64,000 nucleotides of DNA from Deltaproteobacteria bacterium (GCA_016183065.1 JACPFF010000015.1:62001-126000); one strand, 5' to 3'; shown: positions 13,355 to 51,657, counted from the first letter of the stretch. Made by a program: numbers and translations. The notes: generated by a model not told the origin, from the letters alone.

Positions 13355-13378
13355 TCGATGATCCCGCGAGAGGGCATC

Positions 13379-15166
13379 ATGCGGATTCGCATCATGACAC
13401 TCGGGCTGCTGTGCGGTGTCCCGATGGTCGTTCCCTCCGTGCTCCTGGCCTATCCCAATGAGGAACGAGCCGTCCTCGATCTCTCCCTCTCGGTTCCAAC
13501 CAGTGCACGCCTCGATACGGAGCGGCAATGGTTACTCCTCGCCAGTGGCGAAACATTGACCGTGGTGGATCTGGCGACCTTTGCCAAGGTGGGGGCAAGC
13601 GACACGCCCTATGCCATTGCGTCCGACGAAGACGTAAACGGTTCCATCCAGGGGCTGGCGATCAGTCTCGAGAATGACCAGCTCTATGCCACGCAGGATG
13701 GTGGCGCACTCCTGATCTACGACCTCACCGACCTGACCGAGGCCCCGACACGTCATCTGGTTTCCACGGGAAGCAATCTGACGTTGGTCGAATATGATTC
13801 CGATCGTGACGAACTCCTGATGCTCAACGAGACCAACGCGAGCATCATTCGCTTCTCGGCCTCCGAGGGCCAGGTTCTTGGCCAAGTACCGCTGACCACG
13901 ACGGGGAGCCTCACGATTGCTGCCATGCACTATGTCCCCAATATTGCCAATGGGGTGGGGGCCCTCTACCTGACAGGGACGACCGGAAAACTCTATCTCT
14001 TGCCGTCCGTAGGATCGGCTGTGGCCACGGTCGTGCTCGATGTGGCCGGTACCGATGATCTGACCGGAATTGCCGCACGTCCTGACAGTAGCATCGTCTA
14101 TGTCATCAACCGATCCGACAAAGTGCTCCACCCACTCACGGCGACCAACCAGGCGCAACTGGCGACGATTGCGCTCGGAGAAAATAGCGACATGGAGTCG
14201 ATCGCCGTGACCGATGTGACCAATCCCTCCGGGACCTATGGATTTGTGGTGGGGAGTGCCGGACTCTCCGTGTTTGATACGGCCAATAACGATCTCTTTG
14301 ACCTCGGCACCACCGACGACGAGGATGAACCGCTCTTGCTGAGCGGGAGTGGACCGATTCTGGCGGGCGATGACGGCTATCTCTATGTGCCCTTCGGGAA
14401 AATTTCGGTGGTGAGCGACAATCCCTTCATCACCGTAAGTACGGTGGAATATTCGAACGGTGGTACGAGCATGGGGAGCGGCGAGTCGGTGGCCCTCACG
14501 TTTTCCTCGGACGAAGGGGGGACGTATGAGACGCGACTCGGCGGTGATACGACCCAGAATGGGAGCCTCATCGCCGATGTCACGGGTGCGTCCTCGGGGT
14601 CGGTCACCGCGGATACCGCCACGACCATCATATTTCAGAAAGACGATTCCTCGCTCTGGGACGAGGGGAATAATCGTTTTTTTCTCTTTGTGACCGATAC
14701 GGAAGGGAATATCGGCCGGCGCGCCACTGCCGTTACCGTGGATACCCCACCGCCGGCCGTCGCCATCTCCAGTGTCGGGTTTGGCAATAGCAAATTATAT
14801 GTCAATATCAATCGGCTCCCCGCGAGCGATATTTCGACCTACCGGGTCTATGCCGATACCGATCCAAACGTCGTCGCCGCAAAGGGGGAGGTGGCAGGGA
14901 CGGCAGCGCAGTCATCGAGCGGGACGATTACGGTGGTGGTGACTGGTCTGCAAAATGGCACCACCTACTATTTGGCCGCAGAGGCCGTCGATTCCGGGGG
15001 CAATGTCAGTGTGTCCCGCACCGTGACCCTGGCCGATGGTGCGGTGGCCAGCGGGTTTCCCGAGGCCACGGTCGGACCGGTGGGGCTCTCCGGCGAGGCG
15101 GGCTGCACGTTGCGGCCGTGGCAGGCCGTCGATGGCCGACAAGTGAGGGCACGTGAATCGCGGTAG
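13379..15166 (+). CDS. Secreted propeller/FN3-like repeat protein
   Basis: Unrecognised 595-residue exported protein. A signal peptide (IMTLGLLCGVPMVVPSVLLA) is followed by about 330 residues of short beta-rich repeats (LLIYDLTDL, GALYLTGTTGKLYLL, IVYVINRSDK), suggesting a beta-propeller. Then come one or two Ig/FN3-like domains (FFLFVTDTEGNIGRR, ATAVTVD, GLQNGTTYYLAAEAVDSGGN). The tail has a lone Cys in GLSGEAGCTLRPW. The ATG at 13379 is preceded by a GAGAGGG stretch; 13358 is an alternative start. It overlaps the next gene, an outer-membrane barrel, by 14 bases, so the two probably act together at the cell surface (inference). Confidence 0.75.
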   Translation: MRIRIMTLGLLCGVPMVVPSVLLAYPNEERAVLDLSLSVPTSARLDTERQWLLLASGETLTVVDLATFAKVGASDTPYAIASDEDVNGSIQGLAISLENDQLYATQDGGALLIYDLTDLTEAPTRHLVSTGSNLTLVEYDSDRDELLMLNETNASIIRFSASEGQVLGQVPLTTTGSLTIAAMHYVPNIANGVGALYLTGTTGKLYLLPSVGSAVATVVLDVAGTDDLTGIAARPDSSIVYVINRSDKVLHPLTATNQAQLATIALGENSDMESIAVTDVTNPSGTYGFVVGSAGLSVFDTANNDLFDLGTTDDEDEPLLLSGSGPILAGDDGYLYVPFGKISVVSDNPFITVSTVEYSNGGTSMGSGESVALTFSSDEGGTYETRLGGDTTQNGSLIADVTGASSGSVTADTATTIIFQKDDSSLWDEGNNRFFLFVTDTEGNIGRRATAVTVDTPPPAVAISSVGFGNSKLYVNINRLPASDISTYRVYADTDPNVVAAKGEVAGTAAQSSSGTITVVVTGLQNGTTYYLAAEAVDSGGNVSVSRTVTLADGAVASGFPEATVGPVGLSGEAGCTLRPWQAVDGRQVRARESR

Positions 15167-15803
15167 ATGGTGGTGGTTGAGTGGATGCCTCATCACTCTG
15201 CTCGGAGGTCTGGGGAGCGCGAGTGCCGCTTCGGCCACCCACAATCCGGAACACTGGAGTCTGGAGTTGCGGGGCGGCGTGTTCGGACCGAGTGGTGATG
15301 TCATGAAGAGTTTTTTTGGGACCTGTTGCTCGCCGACGATCGCCCTGAGCGGCGGTCCCCTGATCGATTCGAAGCTCGGGATCGAAGTGGGTCTGGGGAT
15401 GGTCTCACGACAGGGAAGGGCCCGTGGCGAGATTACTGGCCGCGAGTCGCAAGACGGCTTTTCGCTCCTCCTGTTACCGGTCACGGTCGAGGTGGCCTAC
15501 CGGATTGATTATCATGCCGACCAACCCCTGGCCCCCTATGTCAAAGCGGGTCTCGATGGCGTCTACTTTCGCGAGTCGAGCGCCGGCCAAGGGAGAAAAG
15601 GATTCAAGATGGGTCTGCATGGTGGTGGCGGGTTGATGATTCTCCTCAATGATCTGGCCGAGGGGCGCCTTGATGCGCAGTACGGCTTCAATGACATTTT
15701 TTTTGTGATCGATGGACGATATCGTTGGGCCAACAGTTTTGGCAAGGCCGGATTCAATCTCTCCGGATGGGAAGCCACCGGTGGGGTCCACCTCCAATTT
15801 TGA
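15153..15803 (+). CDS. Predicted outer-membrane beta-barrel protein
   Basis: A 216-residue protein with a signal peptide (WWWLSGCLITLLGG, ending ASA) and alternating beta strands (WSLELRGGVFGPSGD, TVEVAYRI, ASVKAGLDGVYF-like repeats) finishing on an aromatic residue (VHLQF). These are features of small eight-stranded outer-membrane barrels. The paired Cys in GTCCSP are unusual for a barrel loop. The GTG start lies inside the end of the preceding secreted-protein gene. truA follows 1 base after the stop. Confidence 0.75.
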   Translation: MNRGRWWWLSGCLITLLGGLGSASAASATHNPEHWSLELRGGVFGPSGDVMKSFFGTCCSPTIALSGGPLIDSKLGIEVGLGMVSRQGRARGEITGRESQDGFSLLLLPVTVEVAYRIDYHADQPLAPYVKAGLDGVYFRESSAGQGRKGFKMGLHGGGGLMILLNDLAEGRLDAQYGFNDIFFVIDGRYRWANSFGKAGFNLSGWEATGGVHLQF

Positions 15804-38503: not shown

Positions 38504-40693
38504 CTACTCGCCATTGAGTTGCTTTTCGAGTTTCTTCTTCTCGGCCTCTTTTGCCGCGATCTGCCCCTTGAGATCATCGATCTCGTCGGCGAGTTCCTCG
38601 TTTTTCTCCTCGAGTTGTTCTTCGTCGGAGAGCTCGTTGTAGGCTTGTTCTTTTAATCCGAGTTCCTGTTCAAGGTTGGTAATTTCGTCCTTCAGCGTTG
38701 CCAACTTGTCTTGATCGGAGACATTTTCATCAACCATGGGGGTGAAATCAAAGGGATAGGTCCCGGTAATGGTGTCCCCTTTCACCTCACTCACATCGAC
38801 AGAGGTCCCCGAGGCAATGACCGTATTATTCCCCACCTTGTCGTGGACGTGGGTGATGCCGCCGACCACTTCGACCGGGCTCCCATCGACCAGAATGGGT
38901 GTGCTGGCGGGGATGCCATGCAGTTCGACCACGAGCTGCTCGTAGCCCTCCATGGTCTGTTGGATGAAGACGAGCTGGAGGACGCCATTATGTTCCATCA
39001 GAATGGCATCGGTAAATCCCTCGGGCATGGCAAAATCGAGACTCGACGGGTCGGACCCGGCGCCGGTCAGGACGATCTTCTCGCCAACGATGAAATCTTC
39101 AAGGTCCTCCGAATCATAACTGGCCCAATGGAAACTGTCGTCATCGGCGTTCTGAGTACCCCAGGTCATGAGACTCGTTTCCACGCCCTCGTCATCCGTC
39201 GAGATCTCGAGCTGTTGTTCGAGGACCTCTTTCATCCCACTTGTGCTGAGGGTCGTCTGTCCCAATTCATCGAGAGGAATCCCGAGCGAGTCCAGATAGG
39301 TCTTCGGGGCGAGAATCACGTCATTCCCGACGGTATCGAAGATCCCCATCGATGTCCCACCGGTCAACGTGACCTGGCTGAAGTCGATCATGTTCGTCTC
39401 GCCATTGCCATAAAAGTTGAGTGTCAATGCCTGGTCGGGATCAAAAAAGCCGTTGATCTTGATGCGCAGCGTCCGTGGGGTGCCATTGGCATCAAAGCCG
39501 ACCATGGTGATGATGAGCGCATTGCCACTGCTGGCCGGCTCCGCGCTCGCCATGGTGTAGCCCTTCGGCATATCGATCGAGAGCGTGCCGTTGGTGACAT
39601 CATCGGCGTCGATCACGAGGGTGCCACTCTTGTAATCGCTCTGGGAGAGATCCACACCGGTGATAAATGAGGAAGGTGGCGGGGTCTCCAGGATCTCGGT
39701 CGCCCCGGGATTTTCATGTTCCGAGACTGCATCGCCGGCGGAGTTGACGACCTTGTCCTGACTGCCGCCACCGGCACGGATGATGTCGATCCCCGCACCG
39801 CCGTCGATCGTGTCATTGCCGTCGTCGCTCCCAAAGCCGATGGCGCCATTTTCGTTGAAGCCATCGCCGAAGAGACGGTCCTTACCTGCGCCGCCGTAGA
39901 TCTTGTCGTTGCCCGCACCACCGACGAGGACATCGTTCCCCTGTGAACCGAGAATGACGTCATTGCCTTGACCACCGAAGACCACAATGCCCCCTGGTTC
40001 ACCAAAGGGCGTGCCCCAATTACCATCGCTGACGCGGGCCAGGAGGTGATTGTCGGAGACCAGTTTTTGCGCCTTGTCCGCGCCATAGATGTAGAACATC
40101 TCCGGCCGGACCGCCATGTTCTTGAGGACGTAAACCTCCTTGGTGCCATCGGTCTTGACGACCTGCACATGGATGTCTTTCCCCACGGTCATGGTGTTCA
40201 CTTCTGCAATCGAATCATCGGCCACAAAGGCCAGGGCATTCGAGGTGGCGGGATTGTTCGGATCGTAGCCACTGTTTTCGAGCATGATCGTCCCGGCATA
40301 GGTCCCGCTCATGGCATGCGGGACCCCGGCATCCACGGGATAGGTCTCGAGGGCACCACTCATGTCGTTCCATCCGACCGACATCTGCGCGAGTTCCTCT
40401 TTCACCGCATCAAAATCGACGTCCGTGCCATCGGGATATTTGCCGGTTTTGACAAAGGTCTCGTAGTTGTCCACGAGGGCCTGTTCTGCCTCGAAGAGTG
40501 CCATGGTCTCGGCATATTTGGCCTGGTCTTCCATGGAGAGATACGCGGAAAATTCCCCCGCGTTCTCGAACTCCTTTTTTTGCAGTTCGAGGTCCTGCTT
40601 GAGCTGCTCCAGGGTCAACTGTTCCTCTTGCGAGAGGACGTTGCTCTCCGTCTTTGGTGCTGCTCCGGCCTTGGCGATCCCTTTGATACTCAT
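38504..40693 (-). CDS. RTX-type calcium-binding repeat protein
   Basis: A 729-residue protein without a Sec signal. Residues ~1-100 and ~660-729 are charged helices or coiled coil (LTLEQLKQDLELQKKEFEN; IAAKEAEKKKLEKQLNGE). Residues ~240-308 carry RTX nonapeptides (GGQGNDVILGSQGNDVLVG and following units), which fold as a calcium-binding beta-roll in type I secreted proteins. The remainder is beta-rich and acidic. A GGGAG ribosome binding site precedes the ATG, which overlaps the stop of the upstream large gene (ATGA). Secretion is likely; no transporter is nearby. Function unknown. Confidence 0.85.
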   Translation of the reverse strand: MSIKGIAKAGAAPKTESNVLSQEEQLTLEQLKQDLELQKKEFENAGEFSAYLSMEDQAKYAETMALFEAEQALVDNYETFVKTGKYPDGTDVDFDAVKEELAQMSVGWNDMSGALETYPVDAGVPHAMSGTYAGTIMLENSGYDPNNPATSNALAFVADDSIAEVNTMTVGKDIHVQVVKTDGTKEVYVLKNMAVRPEMFYIYGADKAQKLVSDNHLLARVSDGNWGTPFGEPGGIVVFGGQGNDVILGSQGNDVLVGGAGNDKIYGGAGKDRLFGDGFNENGAIGFGSDDGNDTIDGGAGIDIIRAGGGSQDKVVNSAGDAVSEHENPGATEILETPPPSSFITGVDLSQSDYKSGTLVIDADDVTNGTLSIDMPKGYTMASAEPASSGNALIITMVGFDANGTPRTLRIKINGFFDPDQALTLNFYGNGETNMIDFSQVTLTGGTSMGIFDTVGNDVILAPKTYLDSLGIPLDELGQTTLSTSGMKEVLEQQLEISTDDEGVETSLMTWGTQNADDDSFHWASYDSEDLEDFIVGEKIVLTGAGSDPSSLDFAMPEGFTDAILMEHNGVLQLVFIQQTMEGYEQLVVELHGIPASTPILVDGSPVEVVGGITHVHDKVGNNTVIASGTSVDVSEVKGDTITGTYPFDFTPMVDENVSDQDKLATLKDEITNLEQELGLKEQAYNELSDEEQLEEKNEELADEIDDLKGQIAAKEAEKKKLEKQLNGE

Positions 40694-43125
40694 ACCGTAC
40701 TCCCGGATGTGTCACCCGCTTCGAATTCTTTTTCGAGCAGGGCCTCTTCCCCCTCGAGGCTTTCGTCCATTGGGACGGATATGCCAAAGACATTGCGATA
40801 TTCATCGAAGAAGGCCGTGATGTTATTTTGTGTCTCCTGATAGACCGGGCCGTATTCGTTCCAGGCCTCTTGTTCAAGGAGGTCGCCCTCTGCCACCAGG
40901 GTCGGGTCTTTGTTGATCTCCTCCAGGAGTGCATTGCGCGCATCGGTATAGGCGTCGACCATCTCCTGGTCGGAATTGGCACTCTCGCCGCTATAGCCGG
41001 TCGGGAGATCATAGACCCCTTCGGTCACGGTAAACTGCAGGTCGCCGCCGGAGATCTTGTATTCATCGTCGTTATACATCCGTTCATTCGAGGCATTATC
41101 GCCGACGTACTCATCGGCTTCGTCTGTCCCCACCTTGGTCTTGATCGTCCCACCGATCACTTCAATGTCATCGCCCGGTTTCCCCGGTTCGGTCGGATTG
41201 TCGATCATGGTGAGGCCTTCCGGGGTATCGTTTTCCACATACACGCCGGGATTCTCCAGATATCCCTTGGTGGTGCCGCGCTTGCCGTCAGACTCATCGA
41301 GATATCGTCCCTCAATCTTGCCCAAGGTATGGATGTAGTTTTCATCCCCTTTGCCACCGTTCGTGATCGTCACGTGGGTGACATTGCGGAGGTGCTTGTT
41401 CCCATCGTGTGCAAACACCGCTGTATGGGCATTGCCCGACCCGTTCACAATCGTCGTATACGCGGGATCACCCTTGGTGATGTCGAACTGCTCCTTCGGG
41501 GGGATATCGATGATGCTATTATATTTATCGACATCAATAACCCCATCGATACCGGCAATAATGGGGCCATTGCGGTTGATGACGTCGGCACTTTCTTTCC
41601 AATAGCCATCTTCTGTTAATGTCGGGCCGACATAGCGACCGCCATCGCCAAAAAAATGTCCGAGCGCGTCGCTGTAGCTCCCGCCTGGTGTATTGAAATA
41701 TCCCTGATTGGTCGTCGAGAAGAACCCGCTATCGACCGTGAGATGAATGGGGCTCCGGAGCATCCGGTTGGGATCATCTTTGCTCCCCCCAATATCGTAT
41801 CCGCTCGTCAGGGCGATGGACAATGAAGAGGCGTAGACTTCGTCATTGACCGTTCCCCCGCTCGGACTGGGATGTTTGAGCGGCTCGAGATACTGCTGGT
41901 TGCTGGGCGTGATGGTGGCACTGCCGATCTGCATCTTGAAGAGCTGGTTCCCGTCGGCATCATTGAAGATCAGCAGATGGTCGGCCCCGAGTTCGATCGC
42001 ATCGTTTCCTGGCGCGGTATATTTTTTCGACGTGAGGACAACGTCCGCGACCTGTATCTGCATATAGCGGTCGCGGATCTCCTCGGGCGGGGCCGCGAGC
42101 TCGCCGTTTTCCATCCCCCCGGTGTAGACGACATACCGTTCGTCGACGATTTTTGGGGTCCCATCGGCATAGGTCTCGACCCAGAAGGAATTCGGGATCG
42201 GAATCGTGAGAGATGTTTTGAAGGTGTTCGTTGACCCTTCATACGTGTCGACCCATTGAGAGGGCGCGTTTCCCGTGGCATTGACAAACAGGTCAACACC
42301 TTCCTCAGCATTCGCTGGTGTGGTCTCAAAATTTTTCACACCGGAAGCGCTTAAATCCCAGACGAAATTCGGATTCATGGCATTGCCTTCAAGAAATTCT
42401 CCCGTCACTGAGTCAAACCGGACTGGCTGCATCGTGCTCTTATTGAGCATGGCGTATTCATCCGTCCCCTGTTCGGTCAGTCGGGTGCCGATGAGATACG
42501 AGGAGGTCATGGGATTGCCAATAATTCCGTCATTGTTCACGTCGTAGTAGTCGATCTGGGATTCCGGGACGCCGTGGTCATTGCCATATTTGAGGCCATA
42601 TTCTTTGGCACGCTCGATCTCGATGGCATAGAGCTTGAGCTGTTCGAGTCGGACCTGCTTCACTTCGGCAATGGCGATGTCGATATTGAGGATTGCCTTT
42701 ATGAGCGAATCAAGGGTCTTGACCTCATCCGGCGTGATGGTCCCCTGATGGAGGCGTTCTTCGAGGGCAATTTTTTCGCTCAGATAAATGATCCGGAGGT
42801 CTTCATACTGCTGGAGCACGGTGCCGTCGGCGAACGTGTTCCCCGTAGGGTCCGCCGATTTGCGCAACTCGGCGACCGTGGGGACGCGATAGTCAGGCGC
42901 CATCCCTTGCGAGGCCGCAATAGCCGCATGGAGGGCACCCAAGGGACCGGTGTTCGGATTCTCCACCGGCGGGACGGTCTCGGACGCGACAAATTGAAAC
43001 ATATCTTCCACCGGATCCACCGGGGTGTCGGCGGCGGTGGACCCCCCACCCAGCGGGAGGGTCTCAGTCCCTTTTGCCGAGGCGGGTGAGAGTAGAGAAA
43101 CGGCCTTGAGTGGCTTGATCTCCAT
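40690..43125 (-). CDS. Large uncharacterised protein of the RTX operon
   Basis: Unrecognised 811-residue acidic protein lacking a Sec signal. Residues ~100-190 form a helical, coiled-coil-like block (EDLRIIYLSEKIALEERL, IDIAIAEVKQVRLEQLKLYA). It is followed by an EF-hand-like loop DVNNDGIIG and a long beta-rich part with several Asp/Gly-rich turns (ADHLLIFNDADGNQLFKMQI, AFVHDGNKHL-like). The ATG at 43125 follows TGGAG; an in-frame ATG at 43173 has no ribosome binding site. It overlaps the RTX gene by 4 bases, so the two large proteins are made together and are probably exported partners (inference). Confidence 0.75.
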   Translation of the reverse strand: MEIKPLKAVSLLSPASAKGTETLPLGGGSTAADTPVDPVEDMFQFVASETVPPVENPNTGPLGALHAAIAASQGMAPDYRVPTVAELRKSADPTGNTFADGTVLQQYEDLRIIYLSEKIALEERLHQGTITPDEVKTLDSLIKAILNIDIAIAEVKQVRLEQLKLYAIEIERAKEYGLKYGNDHGVPESQIDYYDVNNDGIIGNPMTSSYLIGTRLTEQGTDEYAMLNKSTMQPVRFDSVTGEFLEGNAMNPNFVWDLSASGVKNFETTPANAEEGVDLFVNATGNAPSQWVDTYEGSTNTFKTSLTIPIPNSFWVETYADGTPKIVDERYVVYTGGMENGELAAPPEEIRDRYMQIQVADVVLTSKKYTAPGNDAIELGADHLLIFNDADGNQLFKMQIGSATITPSNQQYLEPLKHPSPSGGTVNDEVYASSLSIALTSGYDIGGSKDDPNRMLRSPIHLTVDSGFFSTTNQGYFNTPGGSYSDALGHFFGDGGRYVGPTLTEDGYWKESADVINRNGPIIAGIDGVIDVDKYNSIIDIPPKEQFDITKGDPAYTTIVNGSGNAHTAVFAHDGNKHLRNVTHVTITNGGKGDENYIHTLGKIEGRYLDESDGKRGTTKGYLENPGVYVENDTPEGLTMIDNPTEPGKPGDDIEVIGGTIKTKVGTDEADEYVGDNASNERMYNDDEYKISGGDLQFTVTEGVYDLPTGYSGESANSDQEMVDAYTDARNALLEEINKDPTLVAEGDLLEQEAWNEYGPVYQETQNNITAFFDEYRNVFGISVPMDESLEGEEALLEKEFEAGDTSGSTV

Positions 43126-43296
43126 CGCGACTCCAGAAGGAGCAATTTCCTTGCCAAGATGAAAGGGGAGCATCAGAAATAGTGTATTCTATATGACTGA
43201 AATTATTGATGAAATTTGTCGAATATTCCAGTCGACGTCTGTCGCAACATCTGCAGGAGGGGGTATTCGCTCCATCATGGGACCCAAAGTCCCAGG

Positions 43297-43482
43297 TTAG
43301 GGTCTGACCGGAAATACCTGTTCTGTTTTGGCGCTCAGCTTGGGGCCAGATTTGCCCGATCTGAGAGAGCAAAACCGGAGGCATAGCCGGGCTATGTTGA
43401 GGATTTTGCGAGTGAAGATCGGGAAAAGATGGTCCCAAGATGAGATGCCAAAATGAATAGGTATTTCCGGTCAGACCCTTAA
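43297..43482. repeat. Palindromic MITE-like element, about 186 bp
   Basis: The two ends match as an inverted repeat: GGGTCTGACCGGAAATACCT at 43300-43319 and its complement at about 43460-43479. Homology continues inward with mismatches to a central CATAGCC-G-GGCTATG at 43382-43396, so the whole element can fold into one long hairpin. It is bounded by TTA on the left and TTAA on the right and supplies the stop codon of the 208-residue gene. No transposase is encoded. It resembles non-autonomous palindromic elements such as MITEs or REP relatives. Confidence 0.8.
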
Positions 43483-44105
43483 GAGGGGATTTTGTACAGC
43501 GTCCGATGCTCGTGGACCTTGCCGATTTCGGCGTCTAATCGGAGGAGGGCATCTTTCAGGAGTCCCAACATATCGCGGGCATATTCCGTCGTGGCATAAT
43601 TGCTCCCCTGCAGCTGCCCCTGATATTCGGTGATCAGCGCTCTCAGTTCGTCGCGGCGGATCCGGTAATGGTCCTCGATATCGCGCAGGAGCGAAGGACG
43701 CTGTTTGGCATCTTTCCAGGCATCTTCTGAAAATTGCATGAGATCGCGAAAGAGAGGGACAGCGGGGAGTGCGGCCTCACTCGAGAGGCCAGGGCGTTCC
43801 ACCGTCGCACGGATCCCCTGAAACGTCTCGAGCATCGTCTGGCCCGTCCCGTTCTGCAGGAGCTTCATCTTTGCCTCGTAGAGCGACAGCGCATTGCTCA
43901 GTTCAGAGAAGGCGGCATGATCCGGTTCCAGTGCGGCAGTCCCACCGGCAACAGCGGTGGCCTTGGGCCAAAACCCTCCATCGACCATGAAGTGATCCCC
44001 CGGCACGGCAGTCTCATGCGCGGGAGAGGCCGTGTCAGGCGCGCCAGCCGGCGGGAAGAGGAGCTGACTCCCCTTCGGCTTGCCGATCGAGGGGTCAAAG
44101 CTCAT
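43479..44105 (-). CDS. Uncharacterised 208-residue protein, RTX operon
   Basis: Unrecognised. The first ~70 residues are low-complexity and rich in Pro/Ala/Gly; from about 75 the protein is predicted to be helical (FSELSNALSLYEAKMKLLQN, RDIEDHYRIRRDELRALITE, DMLGLLKDALLRLDAEIGK). There is no signal peptide or membrane segment. The start overlaps the upstream 91-residue gene (ATGA), and its stop codon lies at the edge of the palindromic element, so the element may have trimmed or replaced the original end. Confidence 0.7.
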   Translation of the reverse strand: MSFDPSIGKPKGSQLLFPPAGAPDTASPAHETAVPGDHFMVDGGFWPKATAVAGGTAALEPDHAAFSELSNALSLYEAKMKLLQNGTGQTMLETFQGIRATVERPGLSSEAALPAVPLFRDLMQFSEDAWKDAKQRPSLLRDIEDHYRIRRDELRALITEYQGQLQGSNYATTEYARDMLGLLKDALLRLDAEIGKVHEHRTLYKIPS

Positions 44106-44377
44106 TCGAGTCCCCCTCCCTCTGCGAGCAGTGCCGTGAGAAGGCCTTGGGCCTCCTGGAGGGCAGCCTTGAGGGCCTCCCCCTCGCCCCCGATGGCTGT
44201 TTTTCGTTCGAGGATCTCCAAGATCTTGGCCTGCGACTTAAACTGGCACAGGAGGGTCTCCGGGTCGTATGCACGGTCCTCCTCTGGTTGGGGCGCAGGC
44301 GCGGTCTCCGCTGTCGCCCCCCCATAGGGGGTATTCGACAATGGACGCCGATCGATGTGGGCGATCTCTCTTCCCAT
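44102..44377 (-). CDS. Uncharacterised 91-residue protein, first gene of the RTX operon
   Basis: Unrecognised small protein. The first ~40 residues are polar and Pro/Ala-rich; the rest is one or two amphipathic helices (CQFKSQAKILEILERKTAIG, ALKAALQEAQGLLTALLAEG). GAGGG precedes the ATG. An AT-rich stretch at about 44400-44470 upstream probably holds the operon promoter (possible -10 TATAGA on the minus strand). Size and helicity would suit a chaperone or subunit of the larger operon proteins, but this is speculation. Confidence 0.65.
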   Translation of the reverse strand: MGREIAHIDRRPLSNTPYGGATAETAPAPQPEEDRAYDPETLLCQFKSQAKILEILERKTAIGGEGEALKAALQEAQGLLTALLAEGGGLE

Positions 44378-44513
44378 ATGCCCTCAGAGAGTGAGCAAGA
44401 AAAGTGCCAAACCTGTTTGGAGGGGCAAAATTGTATCTATAGAGTATTATTGTGTTTTTTAACTATTTTTCCTGAACGAGCGATGGGCAATGAGGAGAAA
44501 ATTCCCGGCAACC

Positions 44514-45122
44514 CTATGGTTTGGGGCCTCTTTTCCCCAGCGATGCCCCCACAGTTTCGAGGTGCTGACAGATCTCTCCAAGGCGGAGGGTGAGTGGATC
44601 GTGTGGCCCACGGCCCAGCGTGTTCGGATCGTGCAGGATCGTATCGAGTGCACGGAGCATACGATGCCCAAGCACAACGGCCGGCGCGGTTTCCGCAGGA
44701 GAGTGGAGATGCCGACTCTTGCGTTGACGCAAGAGCTGTGTGATGACGGGAACCAGTTTTTGCAGGGTGTCGGGGGTCTTGACGAGGTATTCATCGGCAC
44801 CGCATTTGATGGCATCCGCGGCCGAAGCGGGATCGCCACTCCGCGAGAGGACCAGGATCGGCGTGCGTCCTGCAGCCATGCGGAGTTGTGGGAGTTCATC
44901 GAGGATCGGTCGCCCGCCCAGATAGAAGCTCGTCATGAAGAGGGCCGGTCGCAATCTCTGCAGGGCCTCGATGGCTTCATCGGGGGTATAGACCCGCTGT
45001 ACGATGAACTCCGGATGTTCTGCGGTCATAGCGCGGCGCACCAGCTGCGCATGGTCGTCATTCTCTTCCAGATAGAGGATCCGGGGTGGCACCGGTTTTT
45101 TCCCCGCAGCGTCTCCGATCAT
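44514..45122 (-). CDS. Response-regulator-like protein with a degenerate receiver domain
   Basis: A 202-residue protein. Residues ~14-135 have the CheY fold pattern: acidic cluster [37 protein letters not shown] with the conserved Lys. The position of the phosphorylated Asp reads [11 protein letters not shown], with Ser65 where Asp is expected. It is therefore probably a pseudo-receiver working without phosphorylation. The ~60-residue tail is helical with no recognised output domain. Its start overlaps the metK stop by 4 bases, so it is made with MetK. Confidence 0.85.
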
Positions 45123-50193: not shown

Positions 50194-51657
50194 CTAATCT
50201 TCCATGCGGCGGCGTTGTGACGAGGGTGGGATGGTCAGGTTTTCTCGGTATTTTGCCACCGTCCGCCGTGCAATCATGATCTGCTCTCCTTGCAAGATTT
50301 TGGCGATCGCCTGGTCGCTCAACGGGTGACGGGGATCCTCGGCATGAATAAGTTTCTCGATGCGACTTCGGACCGCTTCCGCGGCCATATCGCCGCCCTC
50401 GGTTTTTTGGACGGCACTATTAAAGAAAAACTTCAGTTCGAAAATGCCGCGGGGCGTGTGGAGATATTTGTTCGTGGTAACGCGGCTGACGGTTGATTCA
50501 TGCATGCCAATATCCTCGGCCACATCGCGGAGAATCATGGGACGGAGCACAGCAATGCCGCGGTCGAGAAAATCGCGCTGGAATTTCACGATACTCTGGG
50601 CCACCTTGTACAAGGTGCGTTGCCGTTGGTGGATGCTCTTGATCAACCAGAGGGCCGAGCGGAGCTTGTTGTGCAAGTATTCGCGCTCTTCGCTCTTGAT
50701 CGCGGACTCTTTATTGAGTGCCTGGCGATAAAACTGGCTGATCTGCAACTTGGGGAGTCCATCTTCATTGAGAAAGATTTCATACTGGTCGCCCAGTTTG
50801 ACGACGTAGACATCGGGGATGATGTATTGGGCGGTCTCTCCGGCATACGGGCGACCCGGTTTTGGTTCCATATGATGGATGATTTCGACCAATTCCCGGG
50901 CGCGCTCATAGGGAACTTTCAGCTTCTTTGCGATCGGGGTGTAGTGGTGGCGTTCCAGCTCATGCATGTGATTGTCGATAATGGCATGGAGCAGTGCGGC
51001 ATCCCCAGCGGGATACTGCCGGGCCTGGATGTGGAGGCATTCTTGCAGATTCCGCGCCGCCACGCCCGGCGGATCAAAGCGTTGGATTTTGTGGAGGACC
51101 GTCACAATGTCGTCGACCGCCACGGTACATTCGACGGCGATCTCGTCGACGGAGGCCGCAAGATAGCCATCGTCACTCACATTGCCGATGATTTCTTCCC
51201 CGATCAGGCATTCCTTGGGCGTGAAATTCGAGAGATGCAGCTGCCACAAGAGGTGATCCTGGAGTGATTCCGTGGAGGTGACGAGGTTCTCGTAGGTCGG
51301 CCCCTCTTCGGCGAGCGGCGGCGGTTGCCCCGCCGGGTAGGGACTGTTGTAGATGCCGATATAGGTCTCCCAATCGAAGTCATTCGGTTCCTTCAGTTCC
51401 CCTTCCTTGGAACCGACTTCCTCGACCTGCTCTTCCGGCGCGGCGTCCTGAGTCTCTCCCTCCGGCTGTTCAGGGCCTGCCGCCTCGCCATCGCCTTCAG
51501 TCTGTTCTTCCAGTGCCGGATTTTCTGTCAATTCCTGTTGGACGAGATTTTGGAGTTCCAGGCGCGACAGTTGCAACAACTTGATCGCCTGCTGCAGCTG
51601 CGGGGTAATCACGAGCTGCTGGGCCAATCTCAGGTGTTGTTTGATCTCAAGTGCCAT
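50194..51657 (-). CDS. rpoN: RNA polymerase sigma-54 factor
   Basis: Alternative sigma factor that needs enhancer-binding ATPases. The 487-residue protein has region I (Gln/Leu-rich: QLVITPQLQQAIKLLQLSRL), an acidic linker rich in Glu/Gly/Pro (~50-100), the core-binding domain, the helix-turn-helix region (DIGMHESTVSRVTTNKYLHT) and the C-terminal RpoN box ARRTVAKYRE. All domains are intact. It heads the regulatory block rpoN-hpf-hprK-EIIA-HPr-ptsI. Confidence 0.97.
   Translation of the reverse strand: MALEIKQHLRLAQQLVITPQLQQAIKLLQLSRLELQNLVQQELTENPALEEQTEGDGEAAGPEQPEGETQDAAPEEQVEEVGSKEGELKEPNDFDWETYIGIYNSPYPAGQPPPLAEEGPTYENLVTSTESLQDHLLWQLHLSNFTPKECLIGEEIIGNVSDDGYLAASVDEIAVECTVAVDDIVTVLHKIQRFDPPGVAARNLQECLHIQARQYPAGDAALLHAIIDNHMHELERHHYTPIAKKLKVPYERARELVEIIHHMEPKPGRPYAGETAQYIIPDVYVVKLGDQYEIFLNEDGLPKLQISQFYRQALNKESAIKSEEREYLHNKLRSALWLIKSIHQRQRTLYKVAQSIVKFQRDFLDRGIAVLRPMILRDVAEDIGMHESTVSRVTTNKYLHTPRGIFELKFFFNSAVQKTEGGDMAAEAVRSRIEKLIHAEDPRHPLSDQAIAKILQGEQIMIARRTVAKYRENLTIPPSSQRRRMED

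What the first reader, a model, noticed from the sequence alone, without database searches (positions are those of the whole stretch)
38504..44377. Uncharacterised four-gene operon with an RTX protein and no secretion genes
Genes for 91, 208, 811 and 729 residues lie in one direction; the first two and the last two overlap by 4 bases, and the palindromic element lies between the pairs. The last is an RTX calcium-binding protein with coiled-coil ends; the third has an EF-hand-like loop and a coiled-coil block; the first two are small helical proteins. None has a Sec signal. They could be subunits of a large exported surface structure or appendage served by a type I or other exporter elsewhere. 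I know no described system with this composition.
Basis: partly seen in the sequence, partly recalled or inferred. Interest (0 to 1): 0.7.

Follow-up and report, generated by a model that had tools for sequence, protein, structure and literature searches.

The report
Sigma-54-driven RTX and beta-helix operon
In one group of uncultured "deltaproteobacteria", a conserved set of genes under sigma-54 promoters encodes two large calcium-binding fibre-like proteins and two small helical partners, with no ordinary export signal and no type I exporter, so the needle-less type III secretion machine that nearly all these bacteria carry becomes the leading, unproven, candidate for exporting them.

Summary
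The four genes are real and as described: 91, 208, 811 and 729 aa, two 4-base overlaps, no Sec-like segment. The order is conserved. A profile of the third protein finds it in 20 of 46 genomes of the class and in none of 244 others, always in the same neighbourhood: metK - [ahcY] - [degenerate receiver] - [S1 - S2] - third - RTX - truA. S1 and/or S2 are missing in some lineages. The "palindrome" is a MITE-like repeat and does not belong to the system.
New: (1) a sigma-54 promoter (TGGCA-N6-TTGC) lies just upstream of the first gene of each block; all 19 loci scanned have at least one. (2) S2's C-terminal hairpin is homologous to the third protein's N-terminal hairpin. (3) The third protein is modelled, at low confidence, as hairpin + parallel beta-helix + coiled coil. 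(4) No type I adaptor (HlyD) passes its cut-off in the class, whereas a secretin-less non-flagellar T3SS is near-universal, and in three genomes a sigma-54 activator lies in or beside the T3SS locus.
Best reading: a sigma-54-controlled, calcium-stabilised exported surface complex, probably a T3SS cargo. Export is inferred, not shown.

The parts
44102..44377 (-). S1: 91-aa protein, disordered N-terminus and short C-terminal helical hairpin
   Evidence: ORF; homologues of 80-130 aa in the same place in 13 loci; no Pfam or NCBIfam match
43479..44105 (-). S2: 208-aa protein, disordered N-terminus, C-terminal helical hairpin; overlaps S1 by 4 bases
   Evidence: ORF; homologues in alignment A7; no credible Pfam or NCBIfam match
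43491..43766 (-). S2 hairpin module, homologous to the hairpin of the third protein
   Evidence: hhalign probability 96.7%, E 3.7e-10; the third-protein profile finds S2 in two other genomes at 1.8e-9 and 1.4e-7
40690..43125 (-). Third protein, 811 aa: disordered ~80-residue N-terminus, helical hairpin, EF-hand-like loop, predicted right-handed parallel beta-helix, C-terminal coiled coil
   Evidence: family in 20 of 46 class genomes, 0 of 244 others; model pLDDT 57; beta-helix proteins recur among structural matches, Z 7.4 or less
42574..42822 (-). N-terminal helical hairpin of the third protein (residues 102-184)
   Evidence: model, homologous to S2
42517..42543 (-). EF-hand-like calcium loop DVNNDGIIG, conserved as D-x-N-x-D-G-x-I-G
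   Evidence: read in the sequence; conserved columns in A5
38504..40693 (-). RTX protein, 729 aa; overlaps the third gene by 4 bases
   Evidence: PF00353 4.5e-12; family alignment A6; model pLDDT 72
39752..39979 (-). RTX nonapeptide block (about residues 239-314), in the middle of the protein
   Evidence: Pfam; profile hits on CyaA RTX, serralysins, RTX lipases; VIA Z 10.4, rmsd 3.2, 150 aligned to CyaA RTX blocks IV-V (6sus)
40445..40630 (-). N-terminal helical hairpin of the RTX protein (residues 22-83)
   Evidence: model
38516..38716 (-). C-terminal helical hairpin of the RTX protein (residues 660-726), not conserved in relatives
   Evidence: model; alignment A6
44393..44411 (-). Sigma-54 promoter of S1-S2: TTTGGCACTTTTCTTGCTC
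   Evidence: second-best of all sites in the window (16.7 bits); conserved position in relatives
43140..43158 (-). Sigma-54 promoter of third-RTX: CTTGGCAAGGAAATTGCTC
   Evidence: best site in the window (18.9 bits; next unrelated site 12.1, Markov controls 10.0-15.3); conserved position in relatives
44514..45122 (-). Receiver-domain protein upstream of S1; the usual phospho-acceptor Asp position is not conserved
   Evidence: PF00072 2.8e-8; alignment A9; neighbour in most relatives but not in family f5
50194..51657 (-). rpoN (sigma-54), part of the same conserved chromosomal neighbourhood
   Evidence: PF04552/PF04963/PF00309; synteny
43286..43492 (.). MITE-like palindromic repeat inserted between S2 and the third gene's promoter; not part of the system
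   Evidence: 103-nt arms; three copies at 96-100% identity in the own genome

Best explanation
S1-S2 and third-RTX are two short operons, each switched on by RNA polymerase with sigma-54 (promoters shown by conservation). They make one exported, calcium-stabilised assembly: a predicted parallel beta-helix protein and an RTX beta-roll protein, each with helical hairpin ends, plus small helical partners. S2, which carries the same hairpin as the third protein, pairs with it as adaptor, cap or chaperone (inferred). In the calcium-poor cytosol the RTX block and EF-hand-like loop stay unfolded, and they fold on meeting calcium outside (inferred from RTX biology). The cargo leaves without Sec or a type I machine, most likely through the class's secretin-less non-flagellar T3SS, whose locus carries sigma-54 activators in three genomes, and ends up as an adhesive or contact structure on the surface (inferred).
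For: Conservation and order: third family in 20/46 class genomes, 0/244 outside, one syntenic locus. Sigma-54: 31 of 47 core-consensus hits in the 19 loci scanned lie just upstream of the operon genes, against 0.008 expected per 300-base upstream region; all 19 loci have one. rpoN sits in the same neighbourhood. Sigma-54 activators (PF00158, 1e-65 to 1e-69) lie in or beside the T3SS loci of the own genome, G014 and G007. T3SS: SctV (TIGR01399, 767 bits, cut-off 692), SctN, SctJ, SctD-like, SctT in the own genome; SctV/FlhA-type protein in 44/46 class genomes; SctJ also in the two SctV-negative operon carriers G032 and G045. No HlyD over cut-off; no Sec-like segment. Calcium sites: RTX and EF-hand-like loop. 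S2-third hairpin homology. Literature: sigma-54 as controller of the bacterial exterior (PMC3162934).
Against: No export is shown. The T3SS is near-universal in the class while the operon is in 20/46, so co-occurrence says little. No T3SS-type secretin reaches its cut-off in any class genome, so crossing the outer membrane is unexplained. No sigma-54 site stands out from the background in the own T3SS locus (best 13.2 bits, within the range of the controls). N-terminal similarity of the third and RTX proteins to T3SS-locus proteins is only suggestive. The third protein's model is poor (pLDDT 57) and its beta-helix matches have Z below 8. S1/S2 are dispensable in some lineages.
Confidence: 0.42

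Rival explanations
1. The proteins are effectors or toxin-like cargo delivered into another cell through the T3SS, rather than parts of a surface structure; S1 and S2 would be chaperones or companion effectors.
For: Near-universal T3SS; no Sec segment and long disordered N-termini; other signal-less, disordered proteins lie behind similar sigma-54 sites. The Myxococcus needleless T3SS* is needed for prey lysis and its cargo is discussed as still unidentified (PMC12075869).
Against: No enzymatic domain was found in any of the four proteins. Beta-helix, RTX and coiled-coil parts are typical of adhesins and fibres (general knowledge). The chromosomal site is vertically conserved among housekeeping genes, unlike most effector genes (inference).
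Confidence: 0.2
2. The RTX protein and its partners leave through a type I secretion system encoded elsewhere, or one too divergent to be recognised.
For: Most characterised RTX proteins are type I substrates (general knowledge); the RTX match itself is solid.
Against: No HlyD-type adaptor over the curated cut-off in any of 46 genomes and no match at 1e-5 in the own genome. The RTX block is central rather than C-terminal (residues ~239-314 of 729) and C-termini vary between relatives.
Confidence: 0.1
3. The complex is not exported: it is an intracellular or periplasmic scaffold that uses RTX and coiled-coil parts without needing high calcium, or that leaves only by cell lysis.
For: No signal peptide in any member; the upstream degenerate receiver and PTS/sigma-54 neighbours are cytoplasmic regulators.
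Against: Repeated nonapeptide RTX motifs and the conserved EF-hand-like loop need calcium levels found outside the cytoplasm (general knowledge of these families); large acidic beta-solenoid proteins are typical of extracellular proteins (inference).
Confidence: 0.2
4. Chance grouping of unrelated genes.
For: S1 and S2 are missing in some relatives.
Against: Same order in distinct families at 20-30% identity, two 4-base overlaps, shared hairpin module, shared promoter type.
Confidence: 0.02

Closest known systems
RTX proteins (PF00353; CyaA RTX blocks, serralysins, RTX lipases)
   Same: Nonapeptide calcium-binding beta-roll; profile and structural matches.
   Different: The RTX block is short and central, flanked by family-specific beta domains and a helical hairpin; no type I adaptor over cut-off in the genomes; always paired with an unrelated beta-helix-like protein.
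Secretin-less 'Myxo' non-flagellar T3SS / needleless T3SS* of Myxococcus xanthus (PMC3459982, PMC12075869)
   Same: The class carries a non-flagellar T3SS (SctV, SctJ, SctN, SctT, FHA-type SctD) without a T3SS secretin over cut-off.
   Different: The operon is not part of that locus; whether it supplies cargo is untested. The own locus also encodes FliG-, FliK- and FliO-like proteins and a sigma-70-family factor.
Right-handed parallel beta-helix surface proteins and tail fibres (SRRP adhesin 5ny0, FHA secretion domain 1rwr, antigen 43, phage tail fibres)
   Same: Predicted fold of residues ~265-717 of the third protein (Z 5.1-7.4).
   Different: No sequence match to solved structures; Z is in the range of common arrangements; those proteins use Sec, autotransporter or phage routes.
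Sigma-54 regulons of the bacterial exterior (PMC3162934)
   Same: -24/-12 promoters, rpoN next to PTS genes, activators with FHA or receiver domains.
   Different: This regulon member set is undescribed as far as I could find.

Membership tests
Type I-secreted RTX proteins | Calcium-binding nonapeptide repeats | tested here: met
   PF00353 E 4.5e-12, 3 stretches
Type I-secreted RTX proteins | RTX block near the C-terminus, followed only by a short secretion signal | tested here: not met
   block at residues ~239-314 of 729; C-termini not conserved
Type I-secreted RTX proteins | HlyD-type adaptor in the genome | tested here: not met
   TIGR01843: none over cut-off in 46 genomes, no match in the own genome (88.8% complete)
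T3SS substrate | No Sec signal or membrane segment | tested here: met
   hydropathy of all members
T3SS substrate | T3SS in every carrier genome | tested here: inconclusive
   SctV/FlhA-type protein in 18 of the 20 carriers, SctJ in the other two; but the T3SS is near-universal in the class anyway, so the test does not discriminate
T3SS substrate | N-terminal export signal recognised by a T3SS | not testable with these tools
   only a weak shared N-terminal pattern
T3SS substrate | Outer-membrane passage (T3SS secretin) | tested here: not met
   TIGR02516 over cut-off in 0 of 46 genomes
Sigma-54-dependent genes | TGGC-N7-TTGC -24/-12 element at a fixed place upstream, conserved in relatives | tested here: met
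   19 of 19 loci, 31 of 47 hits in the upstream regions
Sigma-54-dependent genes | rpoN and at least one enhancer-binding activator in the genome | tested here: met
   rpoN; PF00158 proteins near the T3SS
Sigma-54-dependent genes | Activator binding sites upstream | not tested
   not examined
MITE-like element (the palindrome) | Several near-identical copies with long inverted repeats and no coding capacity | tested here: met
   3 copies at 96-100% identity, 103-nt arms
Parallel beta-helix proteins (third protein) | Solenoid fold | tested here: inconclusive
   low-confidence model; beta-helix proteins recur with Z 5.1-7.4

The most novel reading that the evidence does not exclude
The operon encodes the distal, calcium-folded structure (or main cargo) of a secretin-less, needle-less T3SS, so that this class uses a sigma-54-controlled beta-helix/RTX assembly where injectisomes use needle, tip and translocon.
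Probability: 0.15. Interest if true: 0.85.

Novelty: new variant of a known kind. Interest (0 to 1): 0.55.

Why it matters
The cargo of secretin-less non-flagellar T3SSs (as in Myxococcus predation) is still discussed as unidentified. A conserved, sigma-54-driven, signal-less protein set in a class where such a T3SS is near-universal gives concrete, testable candidates. It would also be an unusual export route for an RTX protein, with a plausible logic: unfolded in low calcium inside, folded by calcium outside. Even if the T3SS link fails, three protein families without Pfam or NCBIfam models and one clade-specific sigma-54 regulon are newly described.

Tried and rejected
Single-sequence search of genome contigs found nothing; the 14-row alignment had no stretch conserved enough to scan with. 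An alignment of family f5 gave four named records (Deltaproteobacteria MAGs), among them the source contigs of loci already held. The first class search (14 of 46) missed six divergent members that the 14-sequence profile found. Third protein against PDB by sequence: best 0.0051 to a UV damage endonuclease, judged chance; Foldseek nothing at E <= 0.001; PHROGs one stray weak hit; Pfam only weak coiled-coil-type hits such as FliJ 0.0015 in 2 of 14. No match in plasmids (relative's protein) or phages (window protein). Homology of S1 to S2 or to the RTX hairpin, and of the third to the RTX protein, not supported. N-terminal comparison of the third and RTX proteins with T3SS-locus proteins: suggestive in G014, G007 and G027, not significant. 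Helical matches of the RTX C-terminal hairpin (seryl-tRNA synthetase, LSD1, WipA, CdsO) taken as generic coiled coils. VasL/Aldedh hits on S2 are far below cut-off.

Full report
OBSERVATION. On the minus strand lie S1 (44102-44377, 91 aa), S2 (43479-44105, 208 aa), the third gene (40690-43125, 811 aa) and the RTX gene (38504-40693, 729 aa); S1/S2 and third/RTX overlap by 4 bases. Upstream are a receiver-domain protein and metK; downstream is plsB. The window is 64 kb of a 1.97-Mb draft genome in 30 contigs, 88.8% complete.

CONSERVATION. In G019, another family of the same class, the same four genes stand in the same order after metK-ahcY, each 25-29% identical. A two-sequence profile of the third protein found 14 of 46 class genomes; a 14-sequence profile found 20 of 46 and none of 244 genomes outside the class. 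I read twenty loci. The order is rpoN - hpf - PTS genes - metK - [ahcY] - [receiver] - [S1 - S2] - third - RTX - truA. Wherever the contig reaches that far, the RTX gene follows the third gene (for G037 this rests on the RTX match in a 735-aa open frame). S1 and S2 are both present in thirteen loci. Both are absent in G014, G040 and G002, S1 is not seen in G007 and G022, and in G001 S2 is not seen, where the assembly has gaps. In the window itself truA and asd are not next to the operon; plsB is. Named records carrying the family are MAGs labelled Deltaproteobacteria, some from groundwater.

THE PALINDROME. The element between the pairs has 103-nt arms that are 71% complementary. Two further copies at 96-98% identity occur elsewhere in the own genome, and I saw none in the upstream regions of relatives that I read. 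It is a MITE-like insertion and not part of the system.

PROMOTERS. Reading upstream regions side by side showed a sigma-54 -24/-12 element (TTGGCA-N6-TTGC) before S1 (or S2) and before the third gene. A weight matrix built from 23 such sites scores the two window sites 18.9 and 16.7; the next best place in 64 kb scores 12.1 and five Markov controls peak at 10.0-15.3. The matrix was trained on these sites, so I repeated the test with the plain consensus TGGC[AC]N6TTGC. In 19 loci (590 kb, both strands) 31 of 47 matches lie 15-133 bases upstream of an operon gene, where 0.008 per region is expected, and every locus has at least one. In order members G003-G005 only S1 carries the site, so the whole block is probably one transcript. 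In G027 and G022 the RTX gene has a site of its own. Across six genomes the pattern TTGGCAVNNNNNTTGCW occurs 4 to 28 times, against 1 to 4 for its reversed control.

PROTEINS. S2's C-terminal hairpin and the third protein's N-terminal hairpin are homologous (hhalign 96.7%, E 3.7e-10; third-protein profile hitting S2 in G029 and G007). The other pairs of families show no homology. The RTX model (pLDDT 72) has an N-terminal hairpin, beta domains, a central RTX block and, in the window's copy only, a C-terminal hairpin. The RTX part matches CyaA RTX blocks IV-V (Z 10.4, rmsd 3.2, 150 aligned) and serralysins. The third protein's model is poor (pLDDT 57). Residues ~265-717 align repeatedly with right-handed parallel beta-helix proteins (SRRP adhesin Z 7.4, inulin lyase 6.8, FHA secretion domain 6.2, tail fibres), all below Z 8, so this is a lead only. 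A D-x-N-x-D-G-x-I-G calcium loop is conserved. No member has a hydrophobic signal. S1, S2 and the third protein have no credible Pfam or NCBIfam match. The upstream receiver protein lacks the conserved phospho-acceptor Asp in most members.

EXPORT. No HlyD-type adaptor passes its cut-off in 46 class genomes and the own genome has no match; the RTX block is not C-terminal. By contrast SctV/FlhA-type proteins occur in 44 of 46 genomes. In the own genome this is a non-flagellar T3SS: SctV 767 bits (cut-off 692), SctJ, SctN, FHA-type SctD, SctT, a weak SctI, FliG-, FliK- and FliO-like proteins and a sigma-70-family factor. The two operon carriers without an SctV hit (G032, G045) have SctJ. No T3SS-type secretin passes its cut-off anywhere in the class, which resembles the Myxococcus systems (PMC3459982; needleless T3SS*, PMC12075869). 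Sigma-54 activators (PF00158) lie beside the T3SS genes of the own genome (FHA-type, next to a Ser/Thr kinase) and in the T3SS loci of G014 and G007 (receiver-type). This links the T3SS locus to sigma-54 control, though no sigma-54 site in the own T3SS locus stands above background.

WHAT IS SHOWN AND WHAT IS INFERRED. Shown by sequence: the genes, their order, their clade restriction, the shared hairpin, the RTX and EF-hand-like motifs, the promoters, the missing type I adaptor, the T3SS. Inferred: export, calcium-dependent folding after export, assembly into one surface complex, use of the T3SS. My estimates: conserved gene set 0.97; sigma-54 control 0.9; extracytoplasmic location 0.75; T3SS export 0.4; surface structure rather than injected effector 0.45. 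These are judgements, not computed values.

NOVELTY. RTX proteins, beta-helix proteins, sigma-54 regulons and secretin-less T3SSs are all known. Their combination here, and three of the four families, are undescribed as far as the tools and the held literature show. I therefore call it a new variant of a known kind.

Noticed in passing
L135 (start of the contig side, site at G000:C18:5522-5538), L140 519-1072, L145 467-881: A/G-type sigma-54 sites (TTGGCA[AG]N5TTGC) also stand before the rpmE-prfA locus in the own genome, G011 and G017; in G011 and G017 the first gene is a signal-less disordered protein, and the two share a C-terminal pattern (FLDxII...LxSQAxIxKxV).
   Followed up: partly
L146 467-4001, L148 488-4001: After nagZ in G017 and G014, a similar sigma-54 site precedes long signal-less disordered and coiled-coil proteins without Pfam matches: possibly further members of the same regulon.
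   Followed up: partly
L100, L179 (own T3SS locus, G000:C15 ~220-249 kb): The class's non-flagellar T3SS lacks a recognisable secretin and encodes FliG-, FliK- and FliO-like proteins and a sigma-70-family factor: a flagellum-like mix of interest for T3SS evolution.
   Followed up: partly
L196 15433-16548, L201 3655-4827, L202 5317-6510: T3SS-locus proteins of 371-397 aa without Pfam matches carry EF-hand-like loops near the N-terminus (e.g. DTNNDGKINDAE).
   Followed up: no
window 13358-15803: A 602-aa ORF and an overlapping 216-aa outer-membrane-barrel ORF next to asd; several relatives have a single 847-878 aa secreted protein near asd and truA, beside the operon. Possible gene split or frameshift, plus relocation in this genome.
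   Followed up: no
window 44514-45122: Receiver-domain protein next to the operon has lost the conserved phospho-acceptor Asp in most relatives, suggesting a phosphorylation-independent regulator.
   Followed up: partly
window 43286-43492: MITE-like palindromic element with three near-identical copies in the genome, inserted between the two transcription units.
   Followed up: yes
L065 625-1782: In G024 a 385-aa ATPase-like ORF (GDRRIGKTSLLM motif) is inserted between ahcY and S1.
   Followed up: no
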